Shown here piece by piece: positions 51,962 through 61,250 of a DNA stretch of 64,000 bases. Source of the stretch: Ceratorhiza oryzae-sativae. Taxonomy: Eukaryota; Basidiomycota; Agaricomycetes; Cantharellales; Ceratobasidiaceae. Location of the stretch: the NCBI GenBank assembly GCA_030998015.1, contig JARWMV010000243.1, positions 1,116,001-1,180,000 on the forward strand. Direction: 5' to 3'. The notes below the pieces were generated by a model, which was not told the origin of the DNA, did not search any database, and saw only the letters and a list, made by a program, of their open reading frames with translations. Position numbers and translations under genes: made by a program. Position 1 is the first letter of the stretch; each line of letters opens with the position of its first letter.

Positions 51962-52581
51962 CTAAGCCATCTCCGCGACCCATTCCAACACCTGATCTAC
52001 TCGATCATCCAATCCTTTAAGATCATCGCCCAACTCCTTGTAGCGTAGCCCAAGGTCGGCCAGCAGCTCCCTGAACACTGCAGGCTGCTTGTGAGGATCA
52101 TCGAGGGATCTTACACCATCGTCCTCGATCCATTCTGCCACGGGGTTTAACAGAACGAACAGAGCGTTTCGATAAACTGGGAGGAGCCGTTGGAGCTCGA
52201 TTCCACCCATCAGTGTCCTCACACCCTCCTGGCCTTCCGTCGAGAAATAGGCATATGCGATGGGGTCTATCGCAGAACGATCGCACAGAAGGAATTGCTG
52301 TGCGTGCAGTCCTCTAGCATTGCCTTCTGCTTCGGCCTGTGCTTGTAAAATGGCCTTTTGCATATCGAGCATACCCACGTGCTCCGGGTGAATGTTGTCG
52401 AGCGCATTACCGTGCGAGCCACCTCAGAAACGTGCTGGGTAGGAGGTAGACTCAAGCGTGCCGCAATCTTCTTGCAGAGCGTGGTTTTACCAGCCGAAGA
52501 TGGCCCTACAATGTAAATTCCTGTAAGATGCGTAGGGACGAGCCCGTGACCGGTTGAATCGCACTGATATCTATCGAGCAT
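51962..52581 (-). CDS. NadR/TTD14-like P-loop NTPase (AAA_28 type)
   Basis: Small nucleotide-binding protein of about 206 residues. The start at 52581 (MLDRYQCDS) leads into the Walker A motif GIYIVGPSSAGKTTLCKKIA near 52500, then HVSEVARTVMR. The second half has DMQKAILQAQAEAEGNARGL and FLLCDRSAIDPIAYAYF, the acidic motif typical of this family, and ends WVAEMA. The two halves are out of frame by one base at 52384-52385: TFTR must be followed by EHVGMLDMQ, which needs one more G in a GG run. This is probably an assembly deletion. Substrate unknown; relatives phosphorylate nucleoside-type molecules or bind GTP. Confidence 0.78.
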
Positions 52582-53195
52582 AATGAGTCGTCTCTGCTAG
52601 TTAGTATCAGCCTCGTCGCGCTGCAAGTTCCGAGTTTTAGTGTGGGATTACTCACATAGTGTGGGTTTGGGGTGGTGGATTGGCGGGGGACTGATCCGCG
52701 ATGGGATTAGCCACGTCGGCTGTGACCGGTGGCTATCCACATATGACAAAATCACGTGGCTTTGTGGTCACAGGCAGTCTCTGGGTGGGTCGACGCCGTC
52801 GAGTCGTCAGGTCGTTCGTGTCCTGGAGTTGAGCATTTAGGAGTAAGGATTATGCTCAATGGCATGATTCTAGCAACGGAGACTCATCCTTCAGCGATCT
52901 AGTGTAGACCATGCCTCGCCACTGCTGGCACGTTGTGATCACCCAACCCACGTTGTGATCCCGCATATAAGGTGGTGCACAACCCTTACAGAGAAGCGTT
53001 CGCAGAAAAGATACCATAATTACGCCACTGAAACCTTGTTTGTCTCTTGTGAATCGAGGAAAACTCAACTAGAACGGATGTCACGGATTTGTCAGCAGTG
53101 ATGGCGTGGCTAAACCAACTGGTGTGACAAGTTCCAATCGATTGCGAGGGTGTCAGCTTGTCCACGATATCATCCATAATCCAAATTATTTCGAA
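52582..53195. promoter_or_regulatory. Divergent upstream region, P-loop gene / RdRP-helicase
   Basis: A 614-base gap between divergent genes with a TCACGTG element (CACGTG at 52753-52758). The frame of the RdRP is open upstream to about 53073 without an ATG, so a short 5' exon could lie here. No RRM-like N-terminal exon was found. Confidence 0.4.
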
Positions 53196-56100
53196 ATGCC
53201 ACCATATGTTGTTGCACTTCGTTCCCCGCTGACGCCTGACGATGAGTCCTGGGACTTTACTCTTGCGACTCCACTGGGTCCTTCTCGCCCTGGCCGTGGA
53301 AAGCTCATTATATTTACGCCCGAAAGTCTGACTTTGCAGATAGAAGAATTTCCAAGCAATCGTGTTCTGTATCATGACCAGGCAGATGACTTCATCTTGG
53401 CCTCGTTCGGTGCCCTGAGGTTTAAAGATCGCCCGCCATCGGCCGCAGCGGATTACATACTTCGAGTACTGACCAAGGGCTTTTTTCTCGACGGTCGGCA
53501 GTATCGATTCTTTCATCACAGTAATAGCCAGCTTCGGAGTCGCTCGTGCTGGCTGCGGGTTGCACAAACAGACGAAGAACTGGACCGCAGGATACAAGGT
53601 CTTTGCGACGTCTCAAAAATCAATAACATTGCCAAAAGTGAGTCTACTATGGATTCGCTTCAAAATTATTGATTTAAAACTTAGGGGCCAAGAGGATAGG
53701 GCTTTTGTTTTCAGGTGCCGAAATCGACTGGGATTTGGATCCCAAATTCACCAAAGACATTCCCGACATTACCGTTGGTGAAGAGCTTTTCTCTGACGGT
53801 ATGTTTTCACTTGAGGTTCCATCCAACCAGTCCATTAACGAACCTGACCAGGATGTGGCCTTATATCGAGGAGATTCATGCAAATGTTGGCCAAGAAGAA
53901 GCGAATTGTTCACAGGCAGCAAAGGTATACACCTTCCGTAATCCAAATAAGGTACAGGGGTTACAAGGTGAATTGGCGTGGGGTTGGGTCATGAGCTACA
54001 AGCTAACATGTCATCTTAGGGAGTCCTTATGATTCACCCCGAGTTGGACCGAGAGGCCAAACAACACGTCCATTTTCGAGACTCAATGCGAAAGCTCAAG
54101 ACGACCTCCAACAACACATTCTCTGCTGTCGATTACTCGCGACCATATCAGTTTGCGCGTCTAAACAACGATATCGTTGTGCTACTCTCTGCACTTGGTA
54201 TCACCAATGAAACACTCTTAGCGAAGCAAGAAGCGTACTTTCAATGGATCCAATCCGCCCGCACCGATATGTACGCCGCCATGAACCTTCTGGATGCCTT
54301 GGGTCGACATTCCAGTGCAGAGCGAGTGCTGCTGGATGGACTGGACAACGACAATGTGCAAAATGAAATCAAAGCTGCCCAAGCAGCAGAAGTCACTGCG
54401 TTTCGTAAACCCGATACGGAAAAGGAAAGGTGCAGGATACTCCTATTAAAGTCCCGCTTTCTATTTGGTGTATGCGACCCGTATGGAATCCTGGAGGAAG
54501 GAGAGGTTCACGTCCGTATCATGGAGCCTCGTATGGGACTCACGACCCTCACCGCGACAGATCTAATGGTTGTGCGGAATCCTTGTCTTCACCCCGGCGA
54601 CATATTAAAATTAAGAGCTGTACATCACCCTAGAATGGATCATCTAGTCGATTGCATTGTCTTTAGTGGGAAGGGCAAGAGAGCCGCACCAGCGATGAGC
54701 TCTGGGGGTGACCTTGGTATGTGTACACCTGTTATATTACGGCAATCGACTCCGCTGAGAGAATCCACCCCGCCAGACGGCGATCGTTTTACAGTTGTTT
54801 GGGATCCAGACGTTGTCCCGCAGGTTATTGCTCAGGTAGACTAGAATCTATCTTAATTGGTAATAGATGCACATCATTTACCTTACCTTGCAGTCCTACA
54901 ACTATCCCCCGGCCAAGAGCCCAGTAAACATGAATATAACCAGAAAAGACCTAGCTACCCACTTTGCCAATTATAACAAGTGAGTAATATCACTCATTGA
55001 TCGCAGACCCCACGTGTTCATACACTTTGGTTCCGTTAAGCATGAGCCTCGGACGGGTTGCTGCTTTACATATTAAGTGGGCCCGCGCAAAAGGTGCGAT
55101 GAGCCCGAGTGCCAGCAGTTAAATGCACTCCACTCGCAAAGCGTAGATGGCGCCCGCATCCGCATTCCAGAACCACTGACCACTCCACCTGAAGTCGAAG
55201 GCCCCTTTGTGCTGGATATGTTAGCAGAGAAGGCTCGGGAGTTTGCAGCAAAATTCATCGCCGAAACTGCCGGTCAAATTGGAATTTTGGATAAACCCAC
55301 TGCAGAATCGATACTCAAGAGTTTGCTCGCGACAGACGATCCTGTGTTTGCCGCTTCCACTGAGAACGAAATTATTCAACTGTGTTTACGTTTCTCGATG
55401 CGCAATCGGATAGACATGAAGGATTATCTTCACCATATAAACTTTCACGGACTGTCAGCTCAAGAGAAATATGCCCTTTCGAGCGCGCTGAATCTAACTC
55501 CCGAGTCGCATCCTTTTGTTTGGAATAGGTGCGCTTTGTAGCGGCAATAAGAAACAGGTACTAAGCTTGCTGAATAGCCTACTTCGATCGAATGTCGTTC
55601 CAGGATTTGTTTTGAGAGAGCAAAACCTGGGTGGTCCTCTACACTTGCAACGTCTATATTCCTCTGAAATACAAGGACGGCCCGCGTTTTTCGAGTACCT
55701 CAAACGAGCAACTACAGATTTCAACCGGAAGTTGATCATCATCAAGGTTCGTTTTTCCTACTATGGTGCATATAGTTTCAACAGCCACGGTTATCAGACA
55801 GATGAACGGTTTGGTGTTGGAATCTTCGTTCGTGGGAAACACTCCTGGGACGAGGACGCGATTGTCAACCAGGATGTCCTGGTCCACGCATTTCAGCCAT
55901 CCGTAGCGACAGGGGGCCAATTAGCCAAACCGACAAAACATGGATACATGTTGTATGCGAGCGATGGCGTCTTTCAACTGTTCGAGCGACACCGCTCGAA
56001 TACTTTCATATTCCTAAATTTTGCCACGAGCTACTCGCAGAATGACGTAAACGCCAGTATAGCTTTGGCGAAGATTAGTGACAATGTCCGAGTGAGTTCT

Positions 56101-59100
56101 TTCTCACGTTTTATTTTTTCTACTTCATGATAAATCAATCTCCTTCCAGCGCCAGATAGGCAGAGTTCAAAAAACCCCAGTGCAGACCCTGGAAATCCAC
56201 GTTGTCTCGAATAGAGATCGAGTTGGACAAGAATTTTTTGATTTAAGGTTTTCACAGTCAGTTCTGACATGATTAAGGCGCGTTCAAGGGGCTAAGTAGT
56301 TCAAAACATCAGTGTCCAAACCGAAAAGATCATCCCGCGCTTCCAACGTGAGGTGGATACCTACATCCCTCGATCGGTCAAGAGCTTACGGGAGCTGGCC
56401 GAACTGCCTGGAGTTCCCCAGCTTGAAAGACGCATTGGCGAATTATTCTCCATGTCGCCAGAACAATTCTTTGAGGAGGTGCGAGACCGCGAATATGAGG
56501 AATTGGAGGATTTCATGCAACTTGCTTGGACACATAATGCTCATGCATACAATTTCTACTTGTTCGAAGTAATCTGTTCAAGGGTTTCGGGGACATCTAT
56601 CGGCACATTACGCCATTGGTTAGGCGTCGATCCTGCTCTAGTATATGCGCTCCTCAAAGTATATGATGATGCGCAAGGGGAACAGCTGGAGTTATTTCAG
56701 ACGATGGACGAAATCATTGTCCGCAGCATTGTCTTGTCCGCGAACACATACTTGATTTCTGCACCGATGACGCTGGAACGATTAAAGCCCATTGTATGTA
56801 GACTCAGCTTCCGCGCGTTTGCTGAAATAATGTGGTTGGTGGCTTGCTCCGTTCGATCCTTGGGCTTGCCGCCGATATGATGGCGACGTTGATGGAGGTT
56901 CGAACAGACGTTTACAGAGGCATATTGGCCCGCGAATACGCGCACAGACACATCTGGGGCGTTTGCGTAGATCGTGCGGAGGATGCCGATTCCCAATGCC
57001 CCTGCACAGACGAGGGCCGTCCGCGACGCCAGCGAAATGCGCCGGCGCTGGTCCCATTGTTTAGAACTGAAGACGAGCATGTGGTAGACGCCCATCCCCG
57101 AATCGATTTGCCTAACCACGTTCGACTACATGCACACATTCGACTGCAAGCGGCGTCCCAACCCGAACATGGCGTGGATCCGCGGGGACGCCCTATCATG
57201 GATGGCATTGTATCTGGCTCACGTCGAGGACAGCTTCGCATTACACTTCTCCACAGCCCCCCAATAGATCTTGAGAATATACAATGGCACCTTTACGCTG
57301 CAGGAGACGTCGTAACTTCTCGTGCAATGTTCGATGCTGTAGTCAACCTGCATACCAAACCACGGGCCTCGACTGTGCTCCATCATTTGCTGACTGGGGA
57401 TGACGCAGCAGCCGATCCGGATGAGCCACAACCAGAAGACTTGGAGAATCAGATCGTTTCGGACGAAGTTCTGGACCCCACAGACCAAGAATCAGGGGAC
57501 TTAGCCACAGCTGATGACGTGCCTCAGGATGTTAGGACGGCCGAGTTTGATCGAGAATGGAATGTCCAAGCCGATGCAATCGAGTGGGATCGCTTCAACG
57601 ATAGCCAGAGACAGGCCATAATGTCGATCGAGCAACCCCTCTCGTTAGTGTGGGGGCCTCCAGGGTATGATTTTTAGAAGGACAAGCGTCATAATCTGTT
57701 TTATAACAAAAGCTGGGTAGAACCGGAAAAACAACGGTTGTAGTTGCGATGCTGCGACTGTTAATCAAAAGCATGCCCTCTGGGTGGCGGATTCTAATGA
57801 CAGCATCAACGCATAATGGTTGGCTGTTTTATTTTTGATCGCTACTCTTATTGATATGGTGATAATCAGCGGTCGACAATGTTCTCGAACGGTTCATAAA
57901 GGAGAACATCGAGCATGATATCATCCCCCAGGATCGACTGCTGCGTGTCGCGACCGATGTTCACCGGGTCCAGACATCGCTCCACGCGTATACAGTTGAC
58001 GCGCTCGTAGGTGGAAGCACAAATGATAACCCGAAGCTCCTCAAAAAGGCAGAGAAACGAGTTCGAGAGTCCACAATCGTCTTTTGTACATGCGCCGGTG
58101 CTGGCCTGGGTATCCTGCGTCGCTTCAAGTTCGAGATAGCACTCATCGACGAGGCATCCCAAATCACGGAGGCTTGCGCGTTAATACCACTAGTGAAAGG
58201 TTGCCGACGAGCAGTCCTCGTCGGAGATCAGTTGAGTCTCCAGCTGTTTGAAATATTGCCCCGCATATACTTACTATGACGTATGTATCCAGTGTGCAGC
58301 TCCGCCCCACAGTCCAGGTTCGAGCAAAGGCCCTAGATTACGATGTTTCGATGCTCGAGAGGCTATACAATGGCCCCGAACAACTAGGAATGTCTCGTAT
58401 CATGCTCGATGTAAGTCATGAACCGGACCCGATGAAGGAGCTGAGGATGGACCATCCGCACAGACGCAATACCGGTTCCCCGATGCATTAGCGCGATTCC
58501 CCTCCAGGGAGTTTTACAACTCCAGCCTCAAAACAGGTGTGCCGGATAATGGATTTGATCTGGCTCGGTTGGCACGGACAGCCTTCCCTTGGCCACGAGG
58601 CCAACATTCCCTGAATACCAACGTTTTTGTATCCTGCAAAGGCGAGGAGTCATATGAAGGGGCATCCAAAGAAAACGTTAGCCAGGCGGACACAGTGGTG
58701 CAGATCCTTAAACTCTTGCGAACTGATCGAAACACCACGGTATCCTCCGAACACGCCCCCGCCGGAAACGCCACAACGCCACTCAGCGTAACTATCCTCT
58801 CACCTTATTCACGCCAGGTCCGTCTTCTCCGGGCACGACTGCAGGCGGACCCTGCATTAGCAGCCAACACAAGCGTTCACACGATTGATGGATTCCAAGG
58901 ACGAGAAGCAGAGGTGATCGTGTTCACCACGGTCCGGAGTAACGCGAGCGGCGACATTGGATTCCTTGCAGATGAGCGGCGCCTCAACGTTGCTCTCACT
59001 CGCGCTCAATTGGGGAGGATTATTGTCGGAAACGAGGCGACGTTGTGTGCAGGGAGTGAAGTTTGGGACAGAGGCTTGAAAGACTGCGCGAGGGTAGAGC

Positions 59101-59123
59101 TTCCAACTCTAGCACAAGTGTAG
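53196..59123 (+). CDS. RNA-dependent RNA polymerase fused to SF1 helicase
   Basis: Roughly 1,700 residues over some 14 exons. The polymerase part (53196-56270) has RRFFHHSNSQLRSRSCW-like sequence near 53510, then AKRIGLLFSGAEIDWDLD after an intron. ELFSDGCGLIS joins across an intron near 53800. VIQIRYRGYKGVLMIHPEL is near 53970. The catalytic loop SGGDLDGDRFTVVWDPD is split by an intron at about 54719-54772. NMSLGRVAALHIKWARAKG is near 55060, and VWNSLLRSNVVP forms over a 49-base intron near 55530. The helicase part (57540-59123) has Walker A GPPGTGKTT rebuilt over an intron near 57700. IALIDEASQITEACAL is near 58150, VGDHVQLRPTV near 58300, TQYRFPDALARFPSREFYNS near 58480, and VHTIDGFQGREAEVIVFTTV near 58900. 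The final motif is RRLNVALTRAQLG. One-base gaps occur near 55098 and 56862-56864. Unusually short N-terminus; start uncertain. Likely role: small-RNA amplification. Confidence 0.88.
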
Positions 59124-59545: not shown

Positions 59546-61250
59546 TCACATGAGGTCGCCAAGCGCAGCCATCTCAGGACCTCCAGATTCTCGCATGCCA
59601 ATCTCCCAGTCTATACGTGACCCAATTAGTTAGAAAGCTTGAGAGAACAGAAGAGATACGCACAGCTGTAGATAATGGTGACGGCCATCAGGATACCAGT
59701 TCCGCTTCCGAGTGCACCCATGAGATCTGCTGCAACAGACAGTAGTCCAAGAATGGCACCACCAAATGCGGCCGCAGTTGGGATGACGCGCTTGAGCTCC
59801 TTGTACATGCTACCTTCACGGTGTCCAGCCATAACCTATATCACAAGAAACTCATGAATTGGAGACAATATTAAATAAGACTATGAGCGTACCATCTGCT
59901 GATCCTTGAGTTGCTTGGCAACGTCACGGGGACCAGATCCAGAAACCTCGATCCAGGTCTTGGAGAACATCGCACAGGCGGTCAGAATGAAGGTGATGTA
60001 AACTGCGGTATGAATGGGGTCGAGAATGGCAGCCTTGAGGGTGTGGGGAGGAGACATGTAGTAGGCGATCCCAGACTTGGCCATGAGTTGTTGCGAATCC
60101 TCCAAAGGCTCCCAGACACCAAGGAGGCGAACGAGGAAGTTCTCGGGGAAGCGGTTGAAGAGCATCTGGCTGAGGATGTACACGTTGCTAGTCAAGGCAC
60201 TCTCGAGCATGATGGGCATGTTGCTGGTGTAAAAGAGCTTGACGGGGTAGCTGCCACGTTGGCCACGGAAACGATTGCTCTTGACCGGAATTTCGATGCG
60301 GAAGCCTTGGAGGTAGATGACAATGGCAAAGACAACGACGGTCGCAAACAGGTTCATGATGTTGGGAAGGCGCTCCCTCCAGAAGGCCTCCTTGAGCGCG
60401 CGGGACTTGTCGTTCCATGTGAAGAGTAGGTGGAATAGCGCGATTATGGCGCCCTCGAATTCGGGACCGCGGCCAGTGTTAATGGTGGTCGGAGAGAACG
60501 CCTTCCAAACGATGCTCTCGCAAATGTTGGTCGCAATGAAGAGCGATACACCAGAGCCAAGACCGTACCCCTTTTGAAGGAGCTCATCCAGGAGGATGAC
60601 GATCAGAGCTCCGACGACGAGCTGCAGGATGAGAAGCAGGCAGACACCGGCCCCCAGCTCGGACGGCTGTCCATACAGTCCAGTCAGGACATAAACAGTT
60701 GCGTGGCCGACAGAGATGATGAGGGCAAACACTGTGCAAAGATTTAGCTATACTGCCACGTGCGCATGAATGACTGATTTTACTCACGCTTTTGAGCGGC
60801 CCCAAACAGAGCACGGTCTTCCTTGAGATTAAAATCGATCTCGATGAGGTTCGCGCCCGCAAGCAGCTGCATGATCATGCCAGAAGTGACGATAGGAGAT
60901 ATACCGAGCTCCATGAGGGTGCCGCGGTTCGAGGCGAGGATGACTCGCATCCAGTAGAGCGGGTCGGACGAGTCGGACGACATGATGCCGTAGAGAGGGA
61001 CCTGGGAGCAGACCAGGAAGACAAGGAGCGTGACGGCAGTCCATAGGATCTTGTGGTTGAACGGGATCTAGCGCGGGGTCAGCGCCGCGTCTTGGTGCTC
61101 GTGCGCCAGACGTACCTTGCGCTCGGGCGAAGAAACCTCGGGGAGGAGGGGCAGGAACGGCCGGACAAGGTTGAGGAATCGGACTGTGTATGCGAGCTCG
61201 TCGTCAGTTCATGTGTCCACGCTGCGAGTCCCGTACTTACAGCCGCTCAT
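59546..61250 (-). CDS. SEC61: Protein translocon subunit SEC61 alpha
   Basis: Ten-helix channel subunit of the ER translocon. The first coding exon is only 10 bases (61241-61250, MSG plus one base) and splices to [20 protein letters not shown] (61116-61183). Family landmarks follow: the plug region [20 protein letters not shown] near 60960, [20 protein letters not shown] near 60890, [20 protein letters not shown] near 60600, and [18 protein letters not shown] near 60540. Also present are [20 protein letters not shown] near 60290, YYMSPPHTL near 60050, and [20 protein letters not shown] near 59820. The last exon ends [10 protein letters not shown] at 59546. All ten membrane segments appear present and in frame. 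A TCACGTG-like site lies upstream at 61364. Confidence 0.96.

What the first reader, a model, noticed from the sequence alone, without database searches (positions are those of the whole stretch)
53196..59123. RNA-dependent RNA polymerase fused to a UPF1/ZNFX1-type helicase in one gene
Exons of a cellular RdRP (with the DLDGD catalytic loop intact after splicing) run without a stop or promoter gap into an SF1 helicase with GPPGTGKT, DEAS and the late QGREAEV and ALTRAQ motifs. In fission yeast the RdRP Rdp1 and helicase Hrr1 are separate partners, and in nematodes ZNFX-1 works with separate RdRPs. A covalent fusion would be a self-contained engine for unwinding a template and making double-stranded or small RNA. 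The N-terminus is much shorter than in usual fungal RdRPs, which may be a lineage feature or a missed exon. Similar fusions may exist in related fungi; I cannot check.
Basis: partly seen in the sequence, partly recalled or inferred. Interest (0 to 1): 0.92.

Follow-up and report, generated by a model that had tools for sequence, protein, structure and literature searches.

The report
Fused RNA copier and RNA helicase
One fungal gene joins an enzyme that copies RNA to a motor that unwinds it; the fusion is real but old and shared by many mushrooms and moulds, and a hidden extra domain between the two halves is the less expected part.

Summary
One 15-exon gene (53196-59123, +) carries a cellular RdRP (PF05183, E 1e-105), a middle with no Pfam call, and a UPF1-like SF1 helicase, all motifs present. 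It is not a local curiosity: the same architecture is listed in Agaricomycetes (97 of 120 rows complete; 12 of the 13 RdRP-only rows stop inside the P-loop) and Pezizomycotina (55 of 112 rows). One is Fusarium FgRdRP5, already in print; its loss lowers exonic siRNAs. Both halves group as one family split by phylum: one old fusion.

The Rdp1-Hrr1 analogy fails as homology: the helicase lies outside the ZNFX1-type clade, and this genome has three separate ZNFX1-type loci. The two frame breaks are probably assembly errors: two other genes break similarly and this copy is not fast-evolving.

New here: the middle is predicted, from one family model, to hold a TLDc-like domain and a helical array where other RdRPs have their head. 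Fold support is good; sequence support is weak. Best reading: a self-contained dsRNA maker feeding Dicer. Enzymatic coupling is inferred.

The parts
53196..59123 (+). RdRP-helicase fusion gene, 15 exons; read here as three in-frame pieces because of two frame breaks
53352..55086 (+). RdRP catalytic domain (PF05183, profile 15-506 of 582)
   Evidence: coordinates
54710..54784 (+). catalytic DLDGD, split by intron 54717-54776
55095..55110 (+). frame break 1 (piece A to piece B), no intron; probably an assembly error
55362..55523 (+). short helices resembling a BACK domain (by eye only; no profile match)
   Evidence: AF2 model of P0228, mapped; naming is inference
55524..56209 (+). TLDc-like domain
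   Evidence: for, against; mapped
56392..56996 (+). all-helical linker (alpha-solenoid)
   Evidence: AF2 models; mapped
56855..56875 (+). frame break 2 (piece B to piece C), no intron; probably an assembly error
57009..57308 (+). beta-barrel before the RecA folds, in the place of the 1B domain of UPF1/IGHMBP2 (domain name recalled)
   Evidence: mapped
57489..58320 (+). RecA1 of the helicase; P-loop GPPGTGKT 57654-57733 split by intron 57665-57720; DEASQ 58148-58162
58351..59084 (+). RecA2 of the helicase (AAA_12); FQGREAE 58893-58913, ALTRAQ 58992-59009

Best explanation
The gene is the Ceratobasidium-type member of an old fungal family of RdRP-helicase fusions (FgRdRP5 type). The RdRP half copies single-stranded transcripts into dsRNA. 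The UPF1-like helicase half moves along the same RNA and clears structure, bound protein or a product strand, so that one polypeptide can copy a template on which a bare RdRP would stall. The TLDc-like domain and the helical array stand where unfused RdRPs have their helical head, and most likely hold the two engines in register and dock a partner. The dsRNA then goes to Dicer and Argonaute, for both of which this genome has matches. Shown: architecture, motifs, grouping of both halves, wide distribution, and (published) a role of the Fusarium orthologue in ex-siRNA accumulation. Inferred: enzymatic coupling, direction of travel, role of the middle module, and that this strain's copy is intact.
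For: Domains and motifs. One protein in relatives: 97 of 120 listed rows (of 364 hits) have RdRP+AAA_11+AAA_12, 10 more RdRP+AAA_11, 13 RdRP alone (counted by hand); 12 of those 13 carry WGPP, the first half of the P-loop, within their last 6-54 residues. In Panus rudis the RdRP model P0112 stops in the P-loop and the 'restrictase' model P0164 begins shortly after that point; both are listed with a longest contig of 195904. Ascomycete side: 55 of 112 rows complete, 6 RdRP+AAA_11, 6 RdRP alone (counted by hand), among them FGSG_09076 (P0285), the fifth of the five loci named for FgRdRP1-5; its AAA_12 match at 1476-1677 fits the paper's 1475-1677. Trees: fusion helicases one clade (17 rows, SH-aLRT 99; two of the 18 relatives chosen, P0022 and P0304, were left out for lack of an intact P-loop or DEA motif), fusion RdRPs one group against six unfused own loci (19 rows, support 83), ascomycete and basidiomycete rows apart in both. 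PDB sequences: RDR2 185.9 bits and QDE-1 74.5 bits for piece A, UPF1/NAM7 161.6 for piece C. Fold: UPF1, IGHMBP2, SEN1 for the helicase half. Piwi and Dicer_dimer matches in the genome. PMC11237814 (abstract, section 16, passages): deleting FgRdRP5 lowers 21-25-nt 5'-U ex-siRNA reads by about 32% and impairs ascospore discharge.
Against: No RNA or enzyme data for this gene; the frame is broken twice in this assembly. FgRdRP5 loss has a weaker ex-siRNA effect than loss of FgRdRP2 or FgRdRP1, so the fusion may be an accessory enzyme; the authors of PMC11237814 also raise rRNA processing or NMD. Support for the fused RdRP group is only 83, with long branches and one row 25% filled among the unfused loci. 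P0119 sits with the basidiomycetes in the helicase tree and with the ascomycetes in the RdRP tree. The window protein is only 34% identical to P0285, so function may have moved.
Confidence: 0.78

Rival explanations
1. Decayed copy: the two frame breaks are real, and this strain carries a recent pseudogene of the fusion.
For: Both breaks sit in conserved coding sequence with no intron to explain them. The profile coordinates of the chaperonin and HSP70 matches show no clear break (read by eye; a few tight joins are ambiguous and breaks near exon ends would be missed), so errors are not everywhere. A DNA search with the helicase part found one place only.
Against: The neighbouring AAA_28 gene on the other strand is split between two frames near 52.4 kb, with profile 2-48 in one and 44-156 in the other and no room for an intron (coordinates), and a SEN1-like gene breaks in the core of its helicase. 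Splice sites and motifs of the fusion gene are intact, and the end branches of the window copy (0.071 RdRP, 0.095 helicase) are like those of P0001 (0.083, 0.080).
Confidence: 0.15
2. A fused Rdp1-Hrr1 pair: the helicase half is the ZNFX1/Hrr1/SAD-3 partner joined to its RdRP.
For: In the helicase tree the fusion clade and the ZNFX1-type clade are neighbours (SH-aLRT 80, with a long-branch warning). Hrr1 works with an RdRP (passage in PMC9276528).
Against: ZNFX1-type rows form their own clade (100) and the fusions another (99). PDB bits: UPF1/NAM7 161.6, SEN1 122.1, ZNFX1 99.0. The genome has three ZNFX1-type loci apart from the fusion. No NF-X1 zinc finger is among the Pfam hits of the fusion proteins scanned.
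Confidence: 0.05
3. Two neighbouring genes in the same orientation, wrongly joined by gene models in many genomes.
For: 13 of 120 rows are annotated as RdRP alone and several separate helicase models exist.
Against: The split models that I looked at break inside the P-loop, not between genes. The middle region aligns from Agaricomycetes to Pezizomycotina. P0077 is a 1720-aa protein on a 5416-base contig, which leaves about 250 bases for introns and ends and suggests a spliced transcript across both halves (the nature of that contig is inference).
Confidence: 0.02

Closest known systems
Fusarium graminearum FgRdRP5 (FGSG_09076, P0285; PMC11237814)
   Same: RdRP followed by an SF1 helicase of the same clade in one 1721-aa protein; same order and similar spacing (DLDGD to P-loop: median 831 residues in ascomycete rows, 823 in basidiomycete rows, 848 here).
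   Different: Other phylum; 34% identical to the window protein over its length. The paper names RdRP, DEXDc and AAA only, not the middle module, in the parts I read.
Fusion proteins of Ceratobasidium and Rhizoctonia records (P0001-P0015)
   Same: 79% identity over the full length for P0001.
   Different: The P0001 model reads through both places where the window frame breaks (its DNA was not seen). I saw no functional description.
S. pombe Rdp1-Hrr1 and C. elegans ZNFX-1 with EGO-1 (PMC9276528, PMC5384783, passages)
   Same: RdRP and an SF1 helicase acting together in small-RNA amplification.
   Different: Separate proteins; helicase of the ZNFX1 type, which this genome also has apart from the fusion.
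TLDc proteins (OXR1, NCOA7, mEAK7, TBC1D24)
   Different: Sequence matches are below Pfam's cut-off and profile-profile probability is under 2%; a TLDc in an RdRP is not known to me (recall).

Membership tests
FgRdRP5-type RdRP-helicase fusion | PF05183 and AAA_11/AAA_12 in one gene in this order | tested here: met
FgRdRP5-type RdRP-helicase fusion | RdRP DLDGD and helicase motifs intact | tested here: met
   all eleven patterns true for the window protein
FgRdRP5-type RdRP-helicase fusion | both halves group with the fusions | tested here: met
   99; 83
FgRdRP5-type RdRP-helicase fusion | one continuous reading frame in this strain | tested here: inconclusive
   two frame breaks, likely assembly errors
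FgRdRP5-type RdRP-helicase fusion | needed for siRNA accumulation | not testable with these tools
   seen only for F. graminearum
ZNFX1/Hrr1/SAD-3 helicases | helicase core falls in the ZNFX1 clade | tested here: not met
   ZNFX1-type rows one clade (100), fusions another (99). The anchor P0321 is called ZNFX1 from PF25396 (name recalled) and its cysteine-rich C-terminus; Hrr1 and SAD-3 were not in the tree
ZNFX1/Hrr1/SAD-3 helicases | NF-X1 zinc fingers (not in every member) | tested here: inconclusive
   none among the Pfam hits
UPF1 | N-terminal zinc domain PF09416 (name recalled) | tested here: not met
   not among the hits; the genome's own UPF1-type locus is L017
TLDc domain | Pfam PF07534 above its curated cut-off | tested here: not met
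   3 of 15 regions, best E 0.0094; 1 of 10 further regions, 13.4 bits against a cut-off of 24.5; none for the window region itself
TLDc domain | TLDc fold over nearly the whole domain | tested here: met

The most novel reading that the evidence does not exclude
These proteins are a separate old class of cellular RdRP. The usual helical head is replaced by a BACK/TLDc-like module and a helical array that carry a UPF1-like helicase, so polymerase, docking module and motor are one processive dsRNA-making machine, inherited mostly vertically since the common ancestor of Agaricomycetes and Pezizomycotina. In basidiomycetes an intron that cuts the P-loop, at which many annotations stop or skip, may act as a splice switch between a helicase-bearing form and an RdRP-only form.
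Probability: 0.4. Interest if true: 0.75.

Novelty: new member of a known kind. Interest (0 to 1): 0.5.

Why it matters
RdRPs in RNAi are known to work with separate helicases (Rdp1-Hrr1, EGO-1 with ZNFX-1). A covalent, conserved pair gives a system in which that coupling can be tested by mutating one residue of either engine in one protein. It is present in many mushroom-forming fungi, where I saw no functional study of it in ten searches (open-licence papers only). One mushroom study that silenced RdRP genes (PMC9769868, passages) describes four RdRPs of 807-1198 aa with the RdRP domain and mentions no fused helicase in what I saw. The TLDc-like module, if confirmed, links RdRPs to a fold known from V-ATPase regulators (recall; V-ATPase complexes are among the matches).

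Tried and rejected
Fused Hrr1: rejected on the helicase tree, though its neighbour placement to ZNFX1 (80) is unresolved and Hrr1 itself was not in the tree.

Loss of the helicase P-loop in a subclade: 20 of 97 complete basidiomycete rows lack GPPGTGKT. In 9 of them the model jumps from GPP straight to AVDN. Rejected as real loss because P0053, inside the same clade, keeps the motif and 10 of the other 11 also look like splice irregularities at that spot; P0055 lacks a wider stretch. Only protein models were seen, no genomic DNA of those species.

Missing DLDGD in 6 of 97 and 3 of 55 rows: mostly garbled or truncated models; P0279 reads HLDGD and P0076 DLDGE.

TLDc by sequence, results against it: profile-profile comparison with a three-row TLDc alignment gave probability 1.9%, and 1 of 40 column-shuffled controls scored slightly higher (20.6 against 20.4). 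An A3 profile against PDB sequences found no TLDc chain. In whole-protein scans of 28 members PF07534 was not among the 25 families shown of 49. The window's own region and P0119's had no TLD hit. The two region scans used the window's region plus 24 of the 38 cut. Five C-terminal reading frames of unfused RdRP loci had no Pfam hit at all, so they are a weak control. The claim rests on the fold of one model plus 4 of 25 weak Pfam hits.

Full report
The observation. I rebuilt the gene from the DNA. Fifteen exons between 53196 and 59123 on the + strand are joined by fourteen short GT-AG introns (47-65 nt). Piece A is a cellular RdRP (PF05183, E 1e-105); piece C holds AAA_11 and AAA_12 (E 3.8e-42 and 2.2e-46); piece B has no Pfam match at E 0.01. 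DLDGD and GPPGTGKT are each completed by splicing, and the other motifs looked for are present.

It is one protein in many fungi. A search with the composite protein (X at the breaks) gave 364 hits, of which 120 were listed. By hand count 97 of 120 carry RdRP, AAA_11 and AAA_12; 10 carry RdRP and AAA_11; 13 carry RdRP alone. The best, P0001 of Ceratobasidium sp. AG-Ba, is 79% identical over its length. The named rows are Agaricomycetes of many orders (class and orders from my own knowledge; some rows are unnamed). Of the 13 RdRP-only rows, 12 carry WGPP, the start of the helicase P-loop, within their last 6-54 residues: fusion genes whose models stop at an intron inside the P-loop, as I read it from proteins alone. 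A second search from a Trichoderma member gave 112 rows, 55 with all three domains. One of these, P0285, is FGSG_09076, the FgRdRP5 of F. graminearum; the window protein is 34% identical to it over its length.

Prior print. PMC11237814 (abstract, section 16 and passages read) states that FgRdRP5 has an RdRP, a DEXDc and an AAA domain and lies on a separate branch. Deleting it impairs ascospore discharge and lowers 21-25-nt 5'-U ex-siRNA reads by about 32%, less than for FgRdRP2 (about 80%) or FgRdRP1 (about 70%). The fusion as such is therefore known. Ten paper searches showed me no functional work on it in basidiomycetes; the library holds open-licence papers only. PMC9769868 (passages) silenced RdRP genes of the mushroom Sanghuangporus vaninii and describes four RdRPs of 807-1198 aa with an RdRP domain. 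PMC4290597 (passages), a survey of fungal RNAi genes, mentions helicase domains only for Dicers in the passages shown. PMC9610886 (passages) counts thirteen RdRP-like sequences in a Ceratobasidium genome, and the word helicase does not occur in its text.

One old fusion. In a helicase tree of 42 rows the 17 fusion rows are one clade (SH-aLRT 99), with the six ascomycete rows apart (99) from the ten basidiomycete rows (99); P0022 and P0304 had been left out for lack of an intact P-loop or DEA motif. In an RdRP tree of 25 rows the 19 fusion rows group against six unfused RdRP loci of this genome (83; some of those rows are long or thinly filled), again split by phylum (99 and 88). In a larger tree of 101 rows, names of one order mostly fall together by my reading. 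The middle aligns throughout. A single fusion before the two groups parted, then mostly vertical descent, fits best; the row P0119 and the Omphalotaceae rows (below) are exceptions that I did not resolve.

Not a welded Rdp1-Hrr1. PMC9276528 calls Hrr1 the S. pombe orthologue of ZNFX-1 (passage). Against PDB sequences the fused helicase scores 161.6 bits with UPF1/NAM7, 122.1 with SEN1 and 99.0 with ZNFX1. This genome has separate loci of UPF1 (L017), SEN1 (L015) and ZNFX1 (L022-L024) type (the anchors were named from Pfam numbers that I recalled). Of the seven RdRP loci found, the one in the window alone has AAA_11/AAA_12 matches beside it. The fusion and ZNFX1 clades are neighbours with support 80 and a long-branch warning, so a distant sister relation stays possible.

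The frame breaks. Relatives' models read through both places (16 of 17 and 17 of 17). Two other genes of this assembly break in the same manner: the AAA_28 gene next door near 52.4 kb, whose profile runs 2-48 in one frame and 44-156 in another, and a SEN1-like gene in its helicase core. The core of UPF1-type L017 reads in two stretches with an intron-sized gap, and chaperonin and HSP70 genes show no clear break at the resolution. The window copy has end branches like those of P0001. I put assembly error ahead of pseudogene, not beyond doubt.

How it likely works. RdRP copies an ssRNA; the helicase clears the way or strips the product; the middle module spaces the two and may dock a partner; Dicer and Argonaute, for which the genome has matches (2 Dicer_dimer places; 13 Piwi exon matches), act on the dsRNA. 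The coupling is inference; only the siRNA role of the Fusarium orthologue is shown.

Verdict. A real fusion gene, an ordinary member of a widespread and partly published family, with an unexpected middle domain that deserves a direct test.

Noticed in passing
window 51962-52596, - strand: AAA_28 (PF13521) gene split between two frames near 52.4 kb with no room for an intron: profile 2-48 in one frame, 44-156 in the other.
   Followed up: yes
L015 (G000:C237:1310001-1319000): SEN1-like helicase with a frame break in its core helicase sequence; sign of residual base errors in the assembly.
   Followed up: partly
window 57665-57720 and relatives: Intron inside the P-loop (GPPG^TGKT). Of 120 listed relatives, 12 models stop at this spot and 19 more skip or garble it (proteins only, so the intron is inferred in them): an annotation trap, or a regulated splice.
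   Followed up: partly
P0084, P0088, P0091, P0095, P0105, P0053: Omphalotaceae rows nest among Russulales rows rather than with other Agaricales (families from my own knowledge): hidden paralogy or horizontal transfer.
   Followed up: no
L022, L023 (C234), L024 (C240): Three separate ZNFX1-type helicase loci, two of them about 9 kb apart.
   Followed up: partly
L009, L010 (C247:532k and 541k): Two unfused RdRP loci about 9 kb apart on one contig, on opposite strands.
   Followed up: no
G000 C14 and C29: Identical chaperonin match scores on two contigs: possibly duplicated haplotype contigs in the assembly.
   Followed up: no
P0215: A helicase hit of this family named 'RNA-dependent RNA polymerase' and filed under the plant Salix suchowensis: probably fungal contamination.
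   Followed up: no
window 59626-61240, - strand: SEC61-alpha-like gene in convergent orientation downstream (by eye; name recalled).
   Followed up: no
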